Source of the DNA: Bacillota bacterium
GTDB lineage: Bacteria > Bacillota > Dethiobacteria > Dethiobacterales > Dethiobacteraceae
DNA length: 14,229 nt
Assembly (NCBI GenBank): GCA_024650095.1
Contig: JANKMV010000018.1
Location: 1-14,229, forward strand
Direction: 5' to 3'
The position numbers and the translations under genes are program-made. Shown here one piece after another: positions 3,275 through 14,229 of this stretch (the first letter of the stretch is position 1; every line of letters starts with the position of its first letter). The notes below the pieces were generated by a model. That model was not told where the DNA came from, did no database searches, and worked only from the letters and a program-made list of their open reading frames with translations.

Positions 3275-3982
3275 TTATTCTAAATCTTTCACCCGTTCCA
3301 ACACGAAACGCTCCCGAAAGCGACCACGCTCGTTTGCCTTAGCCTCAGCCATGCTGGTAATTTCTTCCCAATCTCTACCCTGGTTTGCGGCCAACCCCTT
3401 AATCACTTCCAGAATATCCGCCAACTCCTCCGCTTCCCCAGAACCCGAAAATTCACGAACTTCCTCCCACAACTTCTCCTTTAAAACTCGTGCGTACTCT
3501 TCCTCATCTGCCACATGACAAACGGGTACTTTCCCAGACTTCTCAATAATTGTAGGGATTTTATCCCTCACCAACTTATTATAAACCTGCTCACTATTTT
3601 CTTCTTCCAAAGGATAGGGAACAACACTCTTCTTAATCTTTCTCACCCCACCACGAGGATTCTTTACATCGCCAACAAAACGTGGCATCACATGCACATG
3701 AAAGTGAAACACAGACTGCCCCGCCGCTTCCCCTACATTAACGCCAACATTGTACCCAGCCGGTTGGTATTTTTCATCCAGCAGCTCTTTAACCGTAAAG
3801 ATCAGTTCATTCATGGCCGCCAACTCTTCCGCACTCGCCTCAAAATAGCTAGCAACATGCCGTTTAGGCACCACTAACGTATGCCCCTCATTGACAGGAA
3901 AATTATCATAAAATGCTTTTGCCAAGCTATTCTCACAAAGTAAACTCTCACCTGTTTTAGTACAAAAGATACAATGGGCCAT
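3275..3982 (-). CDS. HIT-family nucleotide hydrolase fused to a MazG-like NTP pyrophosphatase domain (COG4997 type)
   Basis: A 235-residue two-domain protein. Residues 1-115 form a HIT domain: a CIFC zinc-knuckle-like start, GHTLVVPKRH at 33-42, and the histidine triad HFHVHV with His93, His95 and His97, the last being the usual nucleotidylated residue. Residues 133-235 (YNKLVRDKIPTIIEKSG onward) match the all-alpha COG4997 NTP-pyrophosphatase family. Its metal ligands fit ExxE (174-177) and ExxD (186-189), as in MazG folds. HIT proteins cleave nucleoside phosphoramidates or dinucleoside polyphosphates; COG4997 proteins are predicted to remove non-canonical NTPs. A joint nucleotide-housekeeping role is plausible but inferred. 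ATG has a GGGGG-containing site about nine bases upstream. It is first in a two-gene unit with the TPR protein; its leader contains hairpins. Confidence 0.9.
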   Translation of the reverse strand: MAHCIFCTKTGESLLCENSLAKAFYDNFPVNEGHTLVVPKRHVASYFEASAEELAAMNELIFTVKELLDEKYQPAGYNVGVNVGEAAGQSVFHFHVHVMPRFVGDVKNPRGGVRKIKKSVVPYPLEEENSEQVYNKLVRDKIPTIIEKSGKVPVCHVADEEEYARVLKEKLWEEVREFSGSGEAEELADILEVIKGLAANQGRDWEEITSMAEAKANERGRFRERFVLERVKDLE

Positions 3983-8276: not shown

Positions 8277-8589
8277 TTAAATAATGCCAACACACTGAAG
8301 CAAATCCACCAGGGCCGCAAGGTGTTCATCGGCACCAGGCAGGCGTTAATACAACAATACCGAATCCGTGTAGCTCTTGATAGGCCCTATTACAATACCT
8401 CGCTTCAAGATCAGCTGTATTTGGTTCCTTCGGCACCAGAATATAAGCCGCCTTAATAACTTTGCGACGCTGTTCGTCAACTTGGGTGCCATCGTCAGAT
8501 TTCCTTTCTAAAACAATATCCGGAATCATTTGAAAAGAATAAGATCCACGACCAGCTTCCCGATAATTATAGTAACGTTGGAAGTACAT
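8277..8589 (-). pseudogene. Frameshifted remnant of a probable PD-(D/E)XK restriction nuclease (McrC/DUF2357-like C-terminus)
   Basis: The uninterrupted frame covers 8326-8589 (87 residues): YYNYREAGRGSYSFQMIPDIVLE, then AAYILVP, then HGFGIVVLTP, ending AWCR. AGGC is duplicated in tandem at 8337-8344. Removing one copy lets the frame continue from LTP into GADEHLAALVDLLQCVGII up to TAA at 8277-8279, giving a natural 102-residue ending. The order PDIVLE, (A)YILVP, GI..L.PG, helix resembles the C-terminal nuclease domain of McrC/DUF2357-type restriction proteins. The part expected between PDIVLE and the YILVP strand, with the DxK catalytic pair, is missing or very short. So two lesions are likely, an internal loss and a 4-base duplication. 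It lies six bases behind the acidic-tail gene, in the same frame. The family name is from memory and moderately sure; the frameshift is seen directly. Confidence 0.65.
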
Positions 8590-8595
8590 GTGGAA

Positions 8596-9588
8596 TCACT
8601 TTTTGCGTGCGTGCTGTTCTATCCACTTTAGAAGCTTAATGGGATCATCAAACAATTTTTCATCAACCTCGTCGAGATAATCATCATCTTCTTCGTAGCT
8701 CAATTCACCCTCTATAGTGTTGTTACCAATAACAGCTTCTTCCCCATCGAATTCAATAGTATCCATATCGAGTGCAAACAACTCTAAGTCGAAATCTTCT
8801 GTACTCAACGATGATGCTTCTTGGTTATTATAGTCTTCGGCGACGTAATCTTCCTGGTATTCTTGGGATGAAGAGTTGTAATTGTCTTGCATTATCTGCT
8901 TAATGGTTTCTCTGTCAATGACAATACCATCATTTCCATCAAGCAACTTCAAGGGGAACATCTCATATGCGGCATATTCATATGAATCTTGGTATATGTA
9001 GTATGGACGTGCTATCGCATACACAAAATCATAGAAAAACTCTATTACTGAAACATGTATAAAATTTGAAGCATCAATGCGAAGCAGTATGTCTGCTTCA
9101 ATAATACTATTAAGAGAAAACCAGTCTGATAGCATTACAGTAGTCTGTTGATCCGGCTTGCGTTCCGCAAATGAAAACATATATAACTCATTTACTTCAA
9201 ATAAAATAACAGACAATGGCGACGATAGTCGGGATATAATCGAATGTATCTCATGTGCTAATTGGCTACGTTCATTACTTCTGGAATTGAGAGAAATTGC
9301 ATAATAATTAATTTCAGTCCTACAGTTTGTTATATCGAAGTAATTTGCTCCATTTGAGAAAAGTAGTGATGCTGTAATTACCTGGTTAAGACAAGTCCAA
9401 TCTGTAGGGGTCAAAACTTGATCGTGCTGAATATCAAAATATATAAAATCTCGAATACTCTCATTGAAGGTTACCGCTTTGGGATTAAAGGTGTGCCCAG
9501 CCGCACGGAATAACTGCATGGCAAGGCAACAAAAGTCGCCATCTTGAGAGATGTTGAAAATGTTATCACCTTCCTGCGGCTGAAACAA
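8596..9588 (-). CDS. Unrecognised defence-operon protein with highly acidic C-terminal region
   Basis: About 330 residues; no confident family. The first 220 residues look like a folded alpha/beta domain; HEIHSIISRLSSPLSVILFEVNELYMFSFAERKPDQ recalls the small strand-rich N-terminal domains found near some restriction enzymes (DUF4391-like), which I offer only as a weak resemblance. Counted from the GTG at 9597, residues 245-319 contain 29 Asp/Glu, one Lys and no Arg; the protein then ends in a basic amphipathic piece (KLLKWIEQHARKK). Such a tail could mimic nucleic acid or serve as a docking region. Start: GTG 9597 directly abuts AGAAGG, so TTG 9588, eight bases from it, is preferred. It lies 14 bases behind the 170-residue gene. 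Its TGA stop is followed in frame by the nuclease remnant. Confidence 0.7.
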   Translation of the reverse strand: MFQPQEGDNIFNISQDGDFCCLAMQLFRAAGHTFNPKAVTFNESIRDFIYFDIQHDQVLTPTDWTCLNQVITASLLFSNGANYFDITNCRTEINYYAISLNSRSNERSQLAHEIHSIISRLSSPLSVILFEVNELYMFSFAERKPDQQTTVMLSDWFSLNSIIEADILLRIDASNFIHVSVIEFFYDFVYAIARPYYIYQDSYEYAAYEMFPLKLLDGNDGIVIDRETIKQIMQDNYNSSSQEYQEDYVAEDYNNQEASSLSTEDFDLELFALDMDTIEFDGEEAVIGNNTIEGELSYEEDDDYLDEVDEKLFDDPIKLLKWIEQHARKK

Positions 9589-9602
9589 TTGCTTCACCTT
9601 CT

Positions 9603-10115
9603 TTATCCATTCATCAGTTTAGCAAGCTTATCCTCATATGAAATGCCTGATATTTCATCTTTAAATGTACTCATCAACTCATGGATCCTGCTCAAATAAT
9701 CGTTCTGAGTAGTACATCCGTCAATATATCTTTCATAGAGCACCTCGATTCCACCAAGCACATATCCATGGAATATTTCAAGGTTTGCTGACAATTTTTC
9801 TTTGCTTCCATTTTGGGCGTCATCCCTAAAAGTGCGATCCACACGTTCTACCGGCGTAAGCGGCGTGCTTTCATCTAGCATCATGGTGAGACGATACAGG
9901 AATACACAGTTTTCACGCTCATTAGCGAATGCATCGGCGTAAATTCTTGCTCTATCTGCCGAAGGATCTTTTTGACTATTTCGACCATAGAGTAACCCCC
10001 AAACAGCAGCGTTCATATAAACATCAATATATCTTGTAAATATTTTAGCGTCAATGACCATGTATTTTAGATAGGTTGCATGCTTGCCATTGATGGTATA
10101 ATCATTTTCAAACAT
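9603..10115 (-). CDS. Unrecognised 170-residue helical protein of the defence-type operon
   Basis: A 170-residue, mostly helical, soluble protein without signal peptide, membrane segment or metal-binding cysteine cluster. The conserved-looking part is at 14-52: TYLKYMVIDAKIFTRYIDVYMNAAVWGLLYGRNSQKD. The pattern of a helix followed by AA..G..YGR is reminiscent of small Dnd/SMC-associated accessory proteins, but I cannot assign a family. A second helical segment surrounds FHGYVLGGIEVLYERYID. Start ATG 10115 has GGGGG seven bases upstream, inside the end of the ATPase gene, and only two bases separate the genes, so translation is coupled. It probably acts as a partner of the DndD-like ATPase. 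Confidence 0.75.
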   Translation of the reverse strand: MFENDYTINGKHATYLKYMVIDAKIFTRYIDVYMNAAVWGLLYGRNSQKDPSADRARIYADAFANERENCVFLYRLTMMLDESTPLTPVERVDRTFRDDAQNGSKEKLSANLEIFHGYVLGGIEVLYERYIDGCTTQNDYLSRIHELMSTFKDEISGISYEDKLAKLMNG

Positions 10116-10117
10116 CT

Positions 10118-12103
10118 TTACACCCCCTTCATTTCTGTAAAGGTTTCGCTGTGTTTTTCCAAAGCATACCTACTGCCAACGCGATCTATCAACAAAGGTT
10201 CAGCATATCTCCAGTCCTTTTTCATAACGAACATAATCACCTGCTCAGCAACTTCTGGCAAGACACGTGAAATATTGCCAATATGTGTTTCATCTGCATT
10301 TGAAAACGGCGCATCCATGACGAGCGGATAGGGTTCAGTTGAAAGATTCAAGCCACCTTCCTCGGATGAGTTAACTATTTTTTCTTTCGCTAATGCAACA
10401 AGCCCAGCGATAAATGCAAAATTTTTAACCCTCTTGGAGCCCTCGGATTCACCGGTATCTACTTCTTTTTCAGCAATCGTGGATAGTAATGTAACCTGAT
10501 ATTTTTTGTCAATTACGACGCGCCTATGACCATGATACATCCTCTCGAAGATTCTATTTACTCGGGATTCCAATTCCTTGCGAATAAGATCTTCTTTATC
10601 TTTATAAGTGATGGATAACCAATCACGGATTTCCTCCGCATACATTATGTAAAGCATAGCTGCCTTATTTTTGTCGGAAACGGCTACTAAACTATCATAT
10701 ATCTTTTGGTATTTATCAATGTCCCGTTTGTGCGCTTCGTCGTCCCGAATGAGGCGTTCTTTTTTCATTTGTAGATCCCTAATCCGGCCTTTCACATCGG
10801 AAAGCTCTAGTTCGTACTGGCGCATATTCTCCTTACCCTTAATTTTCGTGATGATTTCTTCTATCTCGTCGGTCCAATCCTGCATTCTGACTTTGGAACG
10901 GTATAGCTCTTCAAAGCGTGATTTCATGCTTGAATAAATACGGTCGGAACTAGACCCAAAGTGAGAAAGGCGTTCTTTGTAATATCTGACTGTATTTCCT
11001 ATGGATTCGGGAGGGACGAACGCCAGTTCGCTCACAAGGTGCTCGAACGCCAAATTTCCTTCAACGATTTCTTCCCCGCAGATACATTTGCCTCGATTAA
11101 TGATATCCATAATAGTCACAGCGGTAAGGTCTTTGATGCCTTTGTCATCCACCTTAACCTCACGTAAAAAATCAAATGCCCTTTGCAACAAGGGCTGGGC
11201 AAAAAAATGAAGAGAACCATAATTAAATTCTTTAATAAATTCAGCAACAATGCTCTCTTGTGCAGATGACTCTGCTTTTACTTGCCGTTCAAGAGCCTCC
11301 TTCTTCTTTTGAAGTGCTGCCGTTGATTGATTATCTCGGAGAATTGTATCTAACTGCTCCTTCCTGCCCTCATAATAATTGATTTCGGAAAGGCAGGTTT
11401 CCATTTGAGACTCTACAGCCTCTCGTTTACTATGAGCGTCTTGAATACGAATCAAAGCTTCTTGCGCACGCGCATCTCCGTCTAAATCCATTGAGCCATA
11501 GAACTTACCAATAACACTGGTTTTTGTGGTTTTACTGCCAAGATGTTTAATGGCATTATCAAGAACTGATAAGCCCAGCAAGCCTTTAACGGCATCAGCT
11601 ACATCTTTTCTAGTGCTGATGTTATTCACGCGCTCTGTATCAAAGAAAAAATAAGACGAAAGATCTTCAGGGATGATAAAGTTTATTACATTTTTTATTT
11701 TTATATCTTTAATGAGTTCTGTTTGCCCATCAGGTTGTTTATAAGACACTTTCACAGAAGGCTGAAGTCCTCTAACCGTACCGTTCTTGCAAGTATAAAC
11801 CTGAGTCCGCGTGATAACATACTCCGTGTCATTATGCAGAAGAGCGATCTCCACCTCAACCTCGACGGATGCATCGTTTACCATGTCACTCTCAACCTCA
11901 AGATTAAGCAGAAAATCAGGGTTTTTATCAAACATGACTTTCTGGTAGAAGCACCAACTGAAGGCTTGTAAAAGAGTGGTTTTACCAAACGTATTATCCC
12001 CGAGAATTATAGTTACATTTTTTTCTGGGATACAGGAAAATAAGACTCTAGTTTCTCCTTTAAACTGACGGAAATTTACCATTTTAAGCGATTTTATAAG
12101 CAA
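10118..12103 (-). CDS. DndD/SMC-like ABC-type ATPase with coiled coils
   Basis: A 661-residue ATPase of the RecF/SMC/DndD type. An N-terminal NFRQFKG strand leads to Walker A GDNTFGKT (35-42). The DndD-like mark YFFFDTER is at 151-158. Two coiled-coil arms (about 215-285 and 385-475) flank a hinge with Cys340-Ile-Cys342-Gly, the short CxCG form of a zinc hook. The C-terminal half has a degenerate ABC signature GESEGSKRVKNFAFIAGL (551-568) and Walker B/D-loop PLVMDAPFSNAD (593-604), with the Asp-x-Pro form common in this family instead of Asp-Glu. It should bind DNA ends or structures and drive an ATP-dependent sensing or nicking step. The start is TTG 12103, six bases after a GGGGG site that overlaps the upstream stop. 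DndA, DndB, DndC and DndE are absent, so it is not taken as phosphorothioation DndD. Confidence 0.9.
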   Translation of the reverse strand: MLIKSLKMVNFRQFKGETRVLFSCIPEKNVTIILGDNTFGKTTLLQAFSWCFYQKVMFDKNPDFLLNLEVESDMVNDASVEVEVEIALLHNDTEYVITRTQVYTCKNGTVRGLQPSVKVSYKQPDGQTELIKDIKIKNVINFIIPEDLSSYFFFDTERVNNISTRKDVADAVKGLLGLSVLDNAIKHLGSKTTKTSVIGKFYGSMDLDGDARAQEALIRIQDAHSKREAVESQMETCLSEINYYEGRKEQLDTILRDNQSTAALQKKKEALERQVKAESSAQESIVAEFIKEFNYGSLHFFAQPLLQRAFDFLREVKVDDKGIKDLTAVTIMDIINRGKCICGEEIVEGNLAFEHLVSELAFVPPESIGNTVRYYKERLSHFGSSSDRIYSSMKSRFEELYRSKVRMQDWTDEIEEIITKIKGKENMRQYELELSDVKGRIRDLQMKKERLIRDDEAHKRDIDKYQKIYDSLVAVSDKNKAAMLYIMYAEEIRDWLSITYKDKEDLIRKELESRVNRIFERMYHGHRRVVIDKKYQVTLLSTIAEKEVDTGESEGSKRVKNFAFIAGLVALAKEKIVNSSEEGGLNLSTEPYPLVMDAPFSNADETHIGNISRVLPEVAEQVIMFVMKKDWRYAEPLLIDRVGSRYALEKHSETFTEMKGV

Positions 12104-12115
12104 ATGAAATCCCCC

Positions 12116-12283
12116 TTAATACGTCTTTTTTACTTCATCTGATATGATGCGTCGAATCGATTCTACCATTGTTTCGTTTGGGCGTTCCTGTGTTTTAAGG
12201 TTTTCTTCTTCTGCCTTTAAAATTGCTAATTTCATCCGTTTGAGTTTTTTCTCGTTGATTTCAACGTTCTGATTTTCAGACAT
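12116..12283 (-). CDS. 55-residue charged helical protein, translationally coupled to the helicase
   Basis: Starts at ATG 12283 inside the last codons of the helicase gene (8-base overlap) and ends at TAA 12116-12118, where the GGGGG ribosome binding site of the ATPase gene begins. The product begins MSENQNVEINEKKLKRMKLA and has a long amphipathic, Lys/Glu-rich helix, then a second helix near VESIRRIISDEVKK. There is no known domain. The clean fit between two real genes, with stop-start coupling on both sides, argues that it is real. A GAGGGGATGTAG stretch just upstream provides its ribosome binding site. It is likely a small subunit or adaptor linking helicase and ATPase; no function is known. 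Confidence 0.7.
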   Translation of the reverse strand: MSENQNVEINEKKLKRMKLAILKAEEENLKTQERPNETMVESIRRIISDEVKKTY

Positions 12284-14229
12284 CTACATCCCCTCCTTCA
12301 TCTTCAAAAGATATTTCATACGCATTCACAATATTTGATACTAATATGTCAACAGCCGATGGGTTTTCTGAAATAGAAGCAAAGTCCTTCATGCGGATGA
12401 TTTCCCTGATAGCAAGAGACTTAACACTTTGAAGTACATCCTCCGGGTATTCCTCTACTGCGGATAATGAGATTGGCAGAGTAATAAAATCATAGATAGT
12501 CGCTACTGTCTTGTTGGGATATTTTCGCAAGACGCGTCCACGACGCTGAATATATTCTTTTGGGTTAGTACTACTAGCAAGGATAAAAGCTGTTTTGATA
12601 CTTGGTATATTTACACCTTCATCAAGACACCTGATTGCAATTAGTGCCTGCAAGTGTTTCCCTTCAGCAAAACTAGCTTTTAAGATATCACGCTCTACTG
12701 ATGATTCCTCAGAAGAAAACTTAGAGATTCTCATTCCCATTTCATTTCCAAGCAGATCCGCCACTACGTCAATCTGCCTCATCTCATCTATTGGTGCTGA
12801 ATTCTCTCGATAATCAACATCACGCATCGTTGCTGCACCGCAATAAACAAGCATATGGCTATCATTTTTATACTTACTTATAAGTTGACCAAGAGCAGTA
12901 AGCTTCTCGGCAGCTGCAGCAACTAAACGTGCCCTCTTGATCAAGAGCATTTTTACAAATTCACTTAAAACCAATTTGCCGTGCTTATCCGCGTAAATAC
13001 TACTTCGGATCCTCTGAGTGAGTTCAAGATATTCATTCAATTCAATTTCGTTCAGTGATACAGGCACAGGATGATAATAGTAAGGCGTCAACATATCATT
13101 ATCAATTGCTTGCTTAAGGGTGTATTCAATACACTTTTCCCCAAAATAAGCATATAACTTTTGCGTTCCTTCTTCATCCCCGTGGCGGTCGATTGTTGCC
13201 GACAATGCCAATCTATACGGAATATTCGGCAGGAGCATTTTGCTTAGGTTTTCTGCCCCAAAGTTATGGGCTTCATCGACGATTAAAACAATATTATCCG
13301 TCAAACTCATCAATTGCTTTTGTACATAATCACTTGAAAAAGTTGCATTTGTGGAAATAACGCAAAAATGCTTTTGTACACCGAGTAAGAAACCTGTTAC
13401 GGCAGTCTGAAGCCGTTGCTTCCAATCACGCTGCGAAGACGCTGAATAGCATATAATGGGTCTCATCCCAAACATTTCGATATCAGTTCGCCACTGTTCT
13501 ACAAGGTGCTGGTATGGGCACACGATTATCACAGCAAGACGCTGCTCCGTGTATGCGTACAAGCGTACTAAAGCTGCGAGGGCTGTATAAGTTTTGCCTG
13601 TTCCTGTAGCCATATCAAAGATGCCCCTAAATCCGTGTTGTTCCCAACTTATAATGGCATCATCTTGATAGGGACGAATAAATACACCGGATGGCATACA
13701 AGGGCCTCTGCTGATTTCGTACTCGGGCGAAGCTTCGTTAACCGAGTTGTGCGTATCCTTGTATTCGCGTTCGTCAACAGATAAATCTACTGTATTAGTA
13801 CGTTTGTAGCGCAGAAGAATTTCCTTTGAAATGCTGGGAAAATCCACTACTTTAATGTGAGGTTCATAGTCCCCCCACATCGCATTAAATGCTGCTTGCT
13901 TTGTAAAAACACGCTCTTCCTCACCCGTCCATGAAGAAAAAACATCTATGGATTCGTAGTTAAACGAAAACGCATTTGCACTTTCGTTCATAGAACCGGT
14001 AAAAGCAATAATATTATTTTCTTTATCGTACATCAGTCCCATCTTCTCATGGAACATTCCGATTTGGCTATCACCTTCAAGGAATGCAATTTTTATTTCA
14101 AGTTTACCTAATGCAATAAGATTTGAAAGAAGATTCAGCCGCTCCTTCTCAAATTTGCCAACGGGTTGTGATAGCTCTCGTAGCAGACAATCTTCAATTA
14201 TCTCAAGTCGCCGGTCATGCCCATCATTA
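12276..14229 (-). CDS. PLD-nuclease domain / superfamily 2 DEAH helicase (5' end outside the window)
   Basis: The frame is open from its stop at 12276 to the right edge, so 650 residues are visible and the N-terminus is missing. Visible residues 1-100 are the end of a phospholipase-D-like domain with the HxK...GSxN motif: HEKMGLMYDKENNIIAFTGSMNES (from about 60). The helicase core follows: Q-motif-like IRPYQDDAI, motif I MATGTGKT (about 206-213), motif Ia VIIVCPYQHL, motif II DEAH (about 318-321), motif III SAT (about 343-345), and the second RecA domain ending in motif VI QRRGRVLR (about 561-568). PLD plus SF2 fusions are typical of restriction and phage-defence loci, where they unwind or translocate on DNA and may cut it. 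ATG 14057 lies inside the PLD domain and is not the true start. First visible gene of the operon; promoter off the window. Confidence 0.93.
   Translation of the reverse strand, partial: NDGHDRRLEIIEDCLLRELSQPVGKFEKERLNLLSNLIALGKLEIKIAFLEGDSQIGMFHEKMGLMYDKENNIIAFTGSMNESANAFSFNYESIDVFSSWTGEEERVFTKQAAFNAMWGDYEPHIKVVDFPSISKEILLRYKRTNTVDLSVDEREYKDTHNSVNEASPEYEISRGPCMPSGVFIRPYQDDAIISWEQHGFRGIFDMATGTGKTYTALAALVRLYAYTEQRLAVIIVCPYQHLVEQWRTDIEMFGMRPIICYSASSQRDWKQRLQTAVTGFLLGVQKHFCVISTNATFSSDYVQKQLMSLTDNIVLIVDEAHNFGAENLSKMLLPNIPYRLALSATIDRHGDEEGTQKLYAYFGEKCIEYTLKQAIDNDMLTPYYYHPVPVSLNEIELNEYLELTQRIRSSIYADKHGKLVLSEFVKMLLIKRARLVAAAAEKLTALGQLISKYKNDSHMLVYCGAATMRDVDYRENSAPIDEMRQIDVVADLLGNEMGMRISKFSSEESSVERDILKASFAEGKHLQALIAIRCLDEGVNIPSIKTAFILASSTNPKEYIQRRGRVLRKYPNKTVATIYDFITLPISLSAVEEYPEDVLQSVKSLAIREIIRMKDFASISENPSAVDILVSNIVNAYEISFEDEGGDVDV

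What the first reader, a model, noticed from the sequence alone, without database searches (positions are those of the whole stretch)
8277..14229. Possible uncharacterised multi-gene defence system: PLD-helicase, 55-aa protein, DndD-like ATPase, 170-aa protein, acidic-tail protein, nuclease remnant
Six genes are packed head to tail with 8-base overlap or gaps of 2 to 14 bases, the usual form of a co-translated complex. Helicase and DndD-like ATPase are clear defence families, yet the combination with the three unnamed proteins does not match any system I can name with confidence, and no phosphorothioation, BREX or methyltransferase gene is visible. The unnamed proteins may be specificity or control subunits. 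The missing left neighbour on the other side of the helicase might change this reading.
Basis: partly seen in the sequence, partly recalled or inferred. Interest (0 to 1): 0.72.

Follow-up and report, generated by a model that had tools for sequence, protein, structure and literature searches.

The report
Sulfur-mark phage defence with extra gene
These genes are the attack half of a known kind of bacterial antiviral system that tells self from foreign DNA by sulfur marks; here it sits beside a sulfur-marking module it is not usually described with, and it carries one extra acidic protein of unknown function.

Summary
The operon is real, but its core is not unnamed. The helicase and ATPase are PbeA and PbeC of the phosphorothioate (PT) defence module PbeABCD (PADLOC 4.9e-212 and 2.9e-110); the 55-aa and 170-aa proteins are PbeB- and PbeD-like. 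The DNA-marking genes were invisible because the contig ends inside PbeA. Contig C35 of the same genome holds the end of SspD, then SspB, SspC, SspA and the first 81 residues of PbeA. It shares 7 end bases with the window, and the two PbeA pieces abut on relatives. The locus reads SspD-B-C-A, PbeA-B-C-D, X. In the passages I read, Pbe is paired with Dnd or methylases; yet 13 of 398 Bacillota genomes hold both SspC and PbeC (1.6 expected), 10 within 15 kb on one contig, plus the window's own. The new part is X, the 333-aa acidic-tail protein: rare, in no family library, and following PbeD in L007 and L008. Profile comparison links it tentatively to DUF4391, a neighbour of HKD-type helicases and type III methylases. 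X as helicase brake is inferred. The 'nuclease remnant' has no support.

The parts
12276..14228 (-). PbeA: HKD (PLD-like) nuclease domain plus SF2 helicase, N-terminus cut by the contig end
   Evidence: PADLOC PbeA 4.9e-212; NCBIfam TIGR04095 6.7e-153, 509.9 bits, under its 600-bit cut-off for this cut copy; HEKMGLMYD...GSMN, GTGKT and DEAH motifs present
12116..12283 (-). PbeB-like small protein, 55 aa
   Evidence: No family match; 47% identical to the small ORF in the same place in L006 and L007
10118..12103 (-). PbeC: CxC-type ABC ATPase related to DndD
   Evidence: PADLOC PbeC 2.9e-110 against 3e-30 for the best DndD model; GDNTFGKT, NRGKCICGEEI and DAPF present
9603..10115 (-). PbeD-like protein, 170 aa (DndE clade-2 position)
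   Evidence: Homologous to the ORF after PbeC in L005-L008; broadened profile matches the gene after PbeC in nine other Pbe loci at 93.2%, P 2.9e-7; no match to clade-1 DndE (2.4%)
8596..9597 (-). X: 333-aa protein, alpha/beta core (tentatively DUF4391-like), acidic stretch, C-terminal helix
   Evidence: No family over cut-off; relatives directly after PbeD in L007 (8.5e-26) and L008 (3.9e-14); 24 acidic and 1 basic residue in 251-315; model pLDDT 77.2
8326..8589 (-). 87-aa ORF 6 bases after X; identity unknown, membership of the operon uncertain
   Evidence: No match in PADLOC, Pfam, NCBIfam at E<=1 or in plasmid records

Best explanation
This is the effector half of a PT-based antiviral system. 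An Ssp-type writer (SspD, SspB, SspC, SspA on contig C35) marks host DNA with sulfur, and the PbeABCD module acts on DNA that lacks the right marks. Proposed working: SspA mobilises sulfur and SspD passes it to DNA at sites chosen by SspB with SspC. PbeC with PbeD scans DNA. PbeA, an HKD-domain helicase, is loaded on unmarked DNA and nicks it or stalls its replication; PbeB keeps the complex assembled or restrained. X is proposed to dock on PbeA through its DUF4391-like core and to occupy the DNA path with its acidic tail (DNA mimic) until PbeC-PbeD signals foreign DNA. Shown here: gene identities, order, intact motifs, the neighbouring writer, recurrence of Ssp with Pbe and of X with PbeD. 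From the literature: PT chemistry and antiviral action of Pbe in one archaeon. Inferred: every working step for this operon, and the whole function of X.
For: PADLOC and NCBIfam matches; motifs and tight spacing; SspB 2.3e-61, SspC 6.2e-120, SspA 9.4e-37 on C35; C-terminal 46 residues of SspD at its start (67% identical to L006 SspD, 3.6e-20); PbeA pieces on C35 and in the window meet at residue 111 of L007 PbeA and residue 80 of L018 PbeA, with a shared 7-base end; the same Ssp-Pbe order on one contig in L006 and in several other loci; 13 of 398 genomes with both SspC and PbeC against 1.6 expected, P 3.6e-11; no DndC over cut-off in the own genome; X after PbeD in L007 and L008.
Against: No reads were seen across the C35-window junction, and 7 shared bases alone would be weak. 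DndC search left one match under the cut-off (22.9 bits). No PT measurement. Xiong et al. report no viral DNA cleavage, Rakesh et al. argue for cleavage (passages); nothing here decides. X is absent from the 22 other Bacillota Pbe loci, so Pbe does not need it. The X-DUF4391 link fails in some splits (6% and 0.5% against short DUF4391).
Confidence: 0.8

Rival explanations
1. X is not a brake on PbeA but one of several swappable accessory proteins in a variable slot after PbeD, acting as back-up effector or phage sensor.
For: The gene after PbeD differs among loci: DUF262-type-like ORFs in L024 and L035 (PADLOC PDC-M55C/HEC-05), a DrmC-like weak match in L018 (4.4e-6), X in L007 and L008. X is absent from 22 of 22 other Bacillota Pbe loci.
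Against: No nuclease or other effector motif or fold was found in X, and the conserved acidic tail fits a binding role better.
Confidence: 0.3
2. The C35 writer serves another effector, for example a BREX module, and Pbe is only a neighbour.
For: L006 SspD matches BrxP (6.9e-82) better than SspD (8.4e-13); the own genome also has PglZ and BrxL on contig C143.
Against: C35 itself runs from SspA into PbeA. PglZ passes its cut-off in 1 of 13 other Ssp-Pbe genomes, there about 1 Mb from the SspC-PbeC pair. The C143 BrxL matches the full Lon-related BrxL model, whereas PMC12839542 says type-4 BrxL lacks that C-terminal part (passage).
Confidence: 0.07
3. The locus is decaying and inactive.
For: The 87-aa ORF has no family and may be a relic; some relatives are broken, such as PbeC in G408/L035 and PbeA in L005.
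Against: Frames and motifs of PbeA, PbeC and X are open here; SspB, SspA are open and SspC is open apart from four unread residues.
Confidence: 0.05

Closest known systems
DndCDEA-PbeABCD (Xiong et al. 2019, PMC6459918: passages and section 10 read) = CxC ABC-ATPase/DndE system (Rakesh et al. 2024, PMC10853773: sections 13, 14, 16, 17 and passages read)
   Same: Gene order pbeA-B-C-D, HKD-helicase, small protein, CxC ATPase, DndE-position protein
   Different: Writer is Ssp-type, not DndCDEA; an extra gene X follows PbeD
SspABCD-SspE and SspABCD-SspFGH (Wang et al. 2021, PMC8092258: passages read)
   Same: SspA, SspB, SspC, SspD writer
   Different: Effector is PbeABCD; no SspE or SspF/G/H match among the best PADLOC rows listed for the six window proteins (capped at 25 rows each)
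BREX type 4 (PMC12839542: passages and section 34 read)
   Same: PAPS reductase of BrxP type with DUF4007 and BrxC/SspC-like ATPase
   Different: PglZ and BrxL are not on C35 or in the window; Pbe follows instead
HKD+Snf2 helicase / DUF4391 / type III methylase loci
   Same: An HKD-helicase with a DUF4391-type gene nearby
   Different: Methylation instead of sulfur; X only remotely similar to DUF4391

Membership tests
PbeABCD | PbeA: HKD nuclease domain fused to SF2 helicase | tested here: met
   PADLOC 4.9e-212; motifs; Pfam PLDc_2 26.4 bits, just under its cut-off 27, helicase domains over theirs
PbeABCD | PbeB: small protein between PbeA and PbeC | tested here: met
   55 aa in place, 47% to L006 and L007 counterparts; no library model matched
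PbeABCD | PbeC: CxC ABC ATPase | tested here: met
   PADLOC 2.9e-110, CICG at the coiled-coil middle
PbeABCD | PbeD: DndE clade-2 protein after PbeC | tested here: met
   Profile match to the gene after PbeC in nine other Pbe loci, 93.2%
PbeABCD | PbeD has two ribbon-helix-helix units | not tested
   No structure of PbeD predicted; no solved relative by sequence; no profile match to two clade-1 DndE (2.4%)
PbeABCD | Antiviral action that depends on PT | not testable with these tools
   Needs an experiment
Dnd PT writer (DndCDEA) | DndC over cut-off in the genome | tested here: not met
   0 over cut-off, one match of 22.9 bits against 290.4; assembly 93% complete
Ssp PT writer (SspABCD) | SspB, SspC, SspA and SspD beside each other | tested here: met
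   C35: SspB 2.3e-61, SspC 6.2e-120, SspA 9.4e-37; last 46-47 residues of SspD, the rest off the contig
Ssp PT writer (SspABCD) | PT in DNA | not testable with these tools
   Needs mass spectrometry
BREX type 4 | PglZ and BrxL with the writer | tested here: inconclusive
   Neither is on C35; both are on C143 of the same genome, position relative to C35 unknown
DUF4391 (X) | Score over the Pfam cut-off | tested here: not met
   15.5 bits against 29.9; 2 of 12 members match at E<=0.1, best 0.0028
DUF4391 (X) | Profile-level similarity | tested here: inconclusive
   81.5%, P 1.1e-5 overall; splits 79.9, 42.5, 6.1 and 0.5%

The most novel reading that the evidence does not exclude
A PT defence system in which an Ssp-type writer drives the PbeABCD effector, with X as a fifth effector subunit in its lineage: a DUF4391-type partner of HKD-helicases with a DNA-mimicking tail. 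Methylation-based and sulfur-based systems would then share one kind of helicase brake.
Probability: 0.3. Interest if true: 0.7.

Novelty: new variant of a known kind. Interest (0 to 1): 0.5.

Why it matters
Wang et al. 2021 report 2,211 of 2,678 sspBCD loci without SspE or SspFGH and suggest unknown effectors (passage). Xiong et al. 2019 report 320 of 553 PbeAC without DndCD within 10 kb (section 10). If Ssp and Pbe work together, as 10 side-by-side cases plus the window's own in 398 Bacillota genomes suggest, one pairing explains part of both gaps, and it can be tested by moving one operon into a laboratory host. X would give a handle on how HKD-helicase effectors are kept in check.

Tried and rejected
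Uncharacterised system: rejected for the core by PADLOC and the literature. Dnd-type writer in the own genome: nothing over cut-off.

X as a widespread family: 11 relatives by sequence and 27 by profile in 5.8 billion proteins (itself not counted); P0011 of the first search is not in the second. No relative was confirmed in genome contigs or viral contigs with alignment A1, although the L007 and L008 contigs of genome contigs do hold distant ones, so that scan was not sensitive. None in phages with P0001, in plasmids with P0015, or in viral contigs with P0015. With the X profile 4 of 398 genomes ring; three match only positions 324-412, the charged tail of the long members, and were discounted, and the fourth is the window. 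A match in G070 (E 0.007) lies among unrelated ORFs and was dropped.

Caveats on counts. P0026 was left out of alignment A2 because residues 1-199 are SspC (58% to L006 SspC) and 182-421 are X-like: a fusion or an assembly error. Profile scores of L007 and L008 with A2 are by construction; I quote the earlier blastp. The 398 genomes are species representatives, not independent. G180 (35 kb apart) and G361 (145 kb apart) hold both SspC and PbeC but not side by side. In G408 PbeC is broken by stops. The contig-length test is indirect and saw only the best 120 of 532 PbeD rows.

PbeD and PbeC: no solved relative by sequence. Whether Ssp-Pbe pairing is in print: searches. I opened passages of PMC7464106, PMC12707154, PMC8092258, PMC11931770, PMC12839542, PMC11676413, PMC11662687 and PMC9646914. 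PMC7464106 tabulates strains with PT-writing genes (dnd or ssp) plus pbeA-D, so the co-occurrence may lie unremarked in its data. Supplementary tables and subscription papers such as Xiong et al. 2020 were not read; PMC9239217, PMC8053081, PMC9239176, PMC7461809 and PMC8617147 were seen in listings only.
Full report
What is there. The right half of the window holds six minus-strand ORFs with spacings of -8, 12, 2, 5 and 6 bases. The window is a complete contig of a fragmented assembly, and the first gene is cut by the contig end.

Core identity. The helicase matches the PADLOC PbeA model at 4.9e-212 and the ATPase matches PbeC at 2.9e-110, ahead of the best DndD model at 3e-30. PbeA keeps HEKMGLMYD...GSMN (HKD type), GTGKT and DEAH; PbeC keeps GDNTFGKT, CIC and DAPF. 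The 55-aa protein is 47% identical to the small ORF in the same place in L006 and L007. The 170-aa protein belongs to a set of 532 proteins, itself included. A broadened profile of it matches the gene after PbeC in nine other Pbe loci at 93.2% (P 2.9e-7), while two control profiles give 0.2% and 0.1%; against two clade-1 DndE it gives only 2.4%. This is the order pbeA-pbeB-pbeC-pbeD of Xiong et al. 2019, with reported PbeB and PbeD sizes of 66 and 152 aa (passages). Rakesh et al. 2024 describe PbeA as an HKD endoDNase fused to a helicase, PbeB as a small mostly disordered protein, PbeC as a CxC ABC ATPase and PbeD as the DndE cognate (section 16).

The missing neighbour. DndC is not over its cut-off in the own genome. 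In L006 the order is SspD, SspB, SspC, SspA, PbeA, PbeB, PbeC, PbeD. With L006 SspB and SspC as queries, the own genome gave one match each, both on contig C35. C35 has 6,174 bases. It begins with the C-terminus of SspD (67% to L006 over 46 residues), followed by SspB, SspC and SspA, and ends with the first 81 residues of PbeA. Its last 7 bases equal the first 7 of the window read in the same sense. On L007 PbeA the C35 piece ends at residue 111 and the window piece begins at 111; on L018 both meet at 80. The contigs are therefore very probably neighbours, though no reads were seen. SspC carries four unread residues.

How common is the pairing. PbeC is found in 23 of 398 Bacillota genomes, the own included, and SspC in 28 of 398. 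Thirteen hold both, against 1.6 expected (P 3.6e-11; the genomes are related, so the P is a guide). In ten the two lie within 15 kb on one contig; in the own genome they lie on C35 and C99; in G180 and G361 they are 35 and 145 kb apart. I fetched the surroundings of PbeC in all 22 other genomes. SspB and SspC were present in 10 of 22, and 2 of 22 have Dnd writers: DndB, DndC and DndD over cut-off in L015, DndC and DndD in L017. Xiong et al. counted DndCD near 233 of 553 PbeAC, and methylases near 155 of the 320 others (section 10). I found no statement of an SspABCD-PbeABCD pairing in the passages opened, with the limits given under Tried and rejected.

X. The 333-aa protein matches no family over a cut-off. 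It has 11 relatives by sequence and 27 by profile, itself not counted. Relatives follow PbeD directly in L007 (Eggerthellales) and L008 (Lachnospiraceae), with blastp 8.5e-26 and 3.9e-14; L005 and L006 of the same search have none there, and L006 ends just after PbeD. In L008 the next gene has a DGQHR domain over its cut-off and a DndB match under its own. One further relative, P0026, is part SspC and part X. Nine of 27 profile relatives lie on a longest contig of exactly the length found for a PbeD relative among the best 120 of 532 rows; 8 of 27 lengths fall within 25 bases without being equal, so a chance match is possible for a single pair but nine are not expected. X was not found in the 22 other Bacillota Pbe loci, nor, as a true match, in any of the 397 other genomes of that sample. 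So it marks a minority lineage of Pbe loci.

Anatomy of X. The second model has pLDDT 77.2, with ten-residue means of 83 or more from residue 21 to 200, an alpha/beta core and a poorly ordered stretch before a final helix. Residues 251-315 hold 24 acidic and 1 basic residue, and this stretch is net negative in 30 of 30 aligned members. Profile comparison with 26 DUF4391 sequences gave 81.5% (P 1.1e-5, 144 columns); reversed X gave 0.1% and 20 column shuffles at most 1.0%; SspB, SspA and DndE-position profiles gave under 1%. Split tests were uneven: distant X against long DUF4391 79.9%, close X against long 42.5%, distant X against short 6.1%, close X against short 0.5%. Fold searches found nothing useful. 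Of 25 DUF4391 loci, 21 have both a helicase and a methylase like those of L043, L045 and L052 within the fetched stretch, 23 the helicase and 22 the methylase. Two of two helicases tested match PADLOC 'HKD+Snf2' best and two of two methylases match type III methylase. PbeA is also an HKD-helicase. The common theme would be a DUF4391-type partner of HKD-helicases, and the acidic tail suggests a DNA-mimic brake. Both are inferences; the DUF4391 link itself is tentative.

Verdict. A known effector module, intact as far as visible; an under-described pairing with an Ssp-type writer; one undescribed accessory protein. Xiong et al. saw no viral DNA cleavage, while Rakesh et al. argue for cleavage; nothing here decides between them.

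Noticed in passing
L026 3352-4836, L027 11486-13543, L032 6800-8056: Other PbeA/PbeC loci have a radical-SAM-type gene nearby (Pfam Radical_SAM over cut-off in L027, just under it in L026 and L032; B12-binding domain over cut-off in L032; none in L030, L033, L034). They might use a different DNA modification with the same effector.
   Followed up: partly
G000:C143 (L069) 2-2967: The same genome has a PglZ C-terminus and a full Lon-related BrxL, so a BREX system too, on a contig whose place relative to C35 is unknown.
   Followed up: partly
window 3275-3982 (-); L022 12270-12977: A HIT-domain protein (Pfam HIT 5.1e-24) lies downstream on the same strand in the window, and an ORF of the same length and similar start lies two genes after PbeD in L022 of the same family. 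Link to the defence locus unknown.
   Followed up: no
P0014, P0015, L007 12638-14278 and P0006, P0018, P0019: Several X relatives carry extra C-terminal parts: a long charged, coiled-coil-looking repeat (P0014, P0015) or a short extra domain that looks alike in P0006 and P0018 (reading of the letters; no Pfam match).
   Followed up: partly
L005 1-9995: Rearranged Ssp-Pbe locus: SspC, SspB, SspD and PbeD on the minus strand, SspA, PbeA fragments and PbeC on the plus strand.
   Followed up: no
L024 11382-13547, L035 11440-13584: DUF262-like reading frames follow the Pbe genes in two Ssp-Pbe loci (PADLOC PDC-M55C and HEC-05 partial matches; SspE 2.2e-4 in L035), suggesting a variable accessory slot.
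   Followed up: partly
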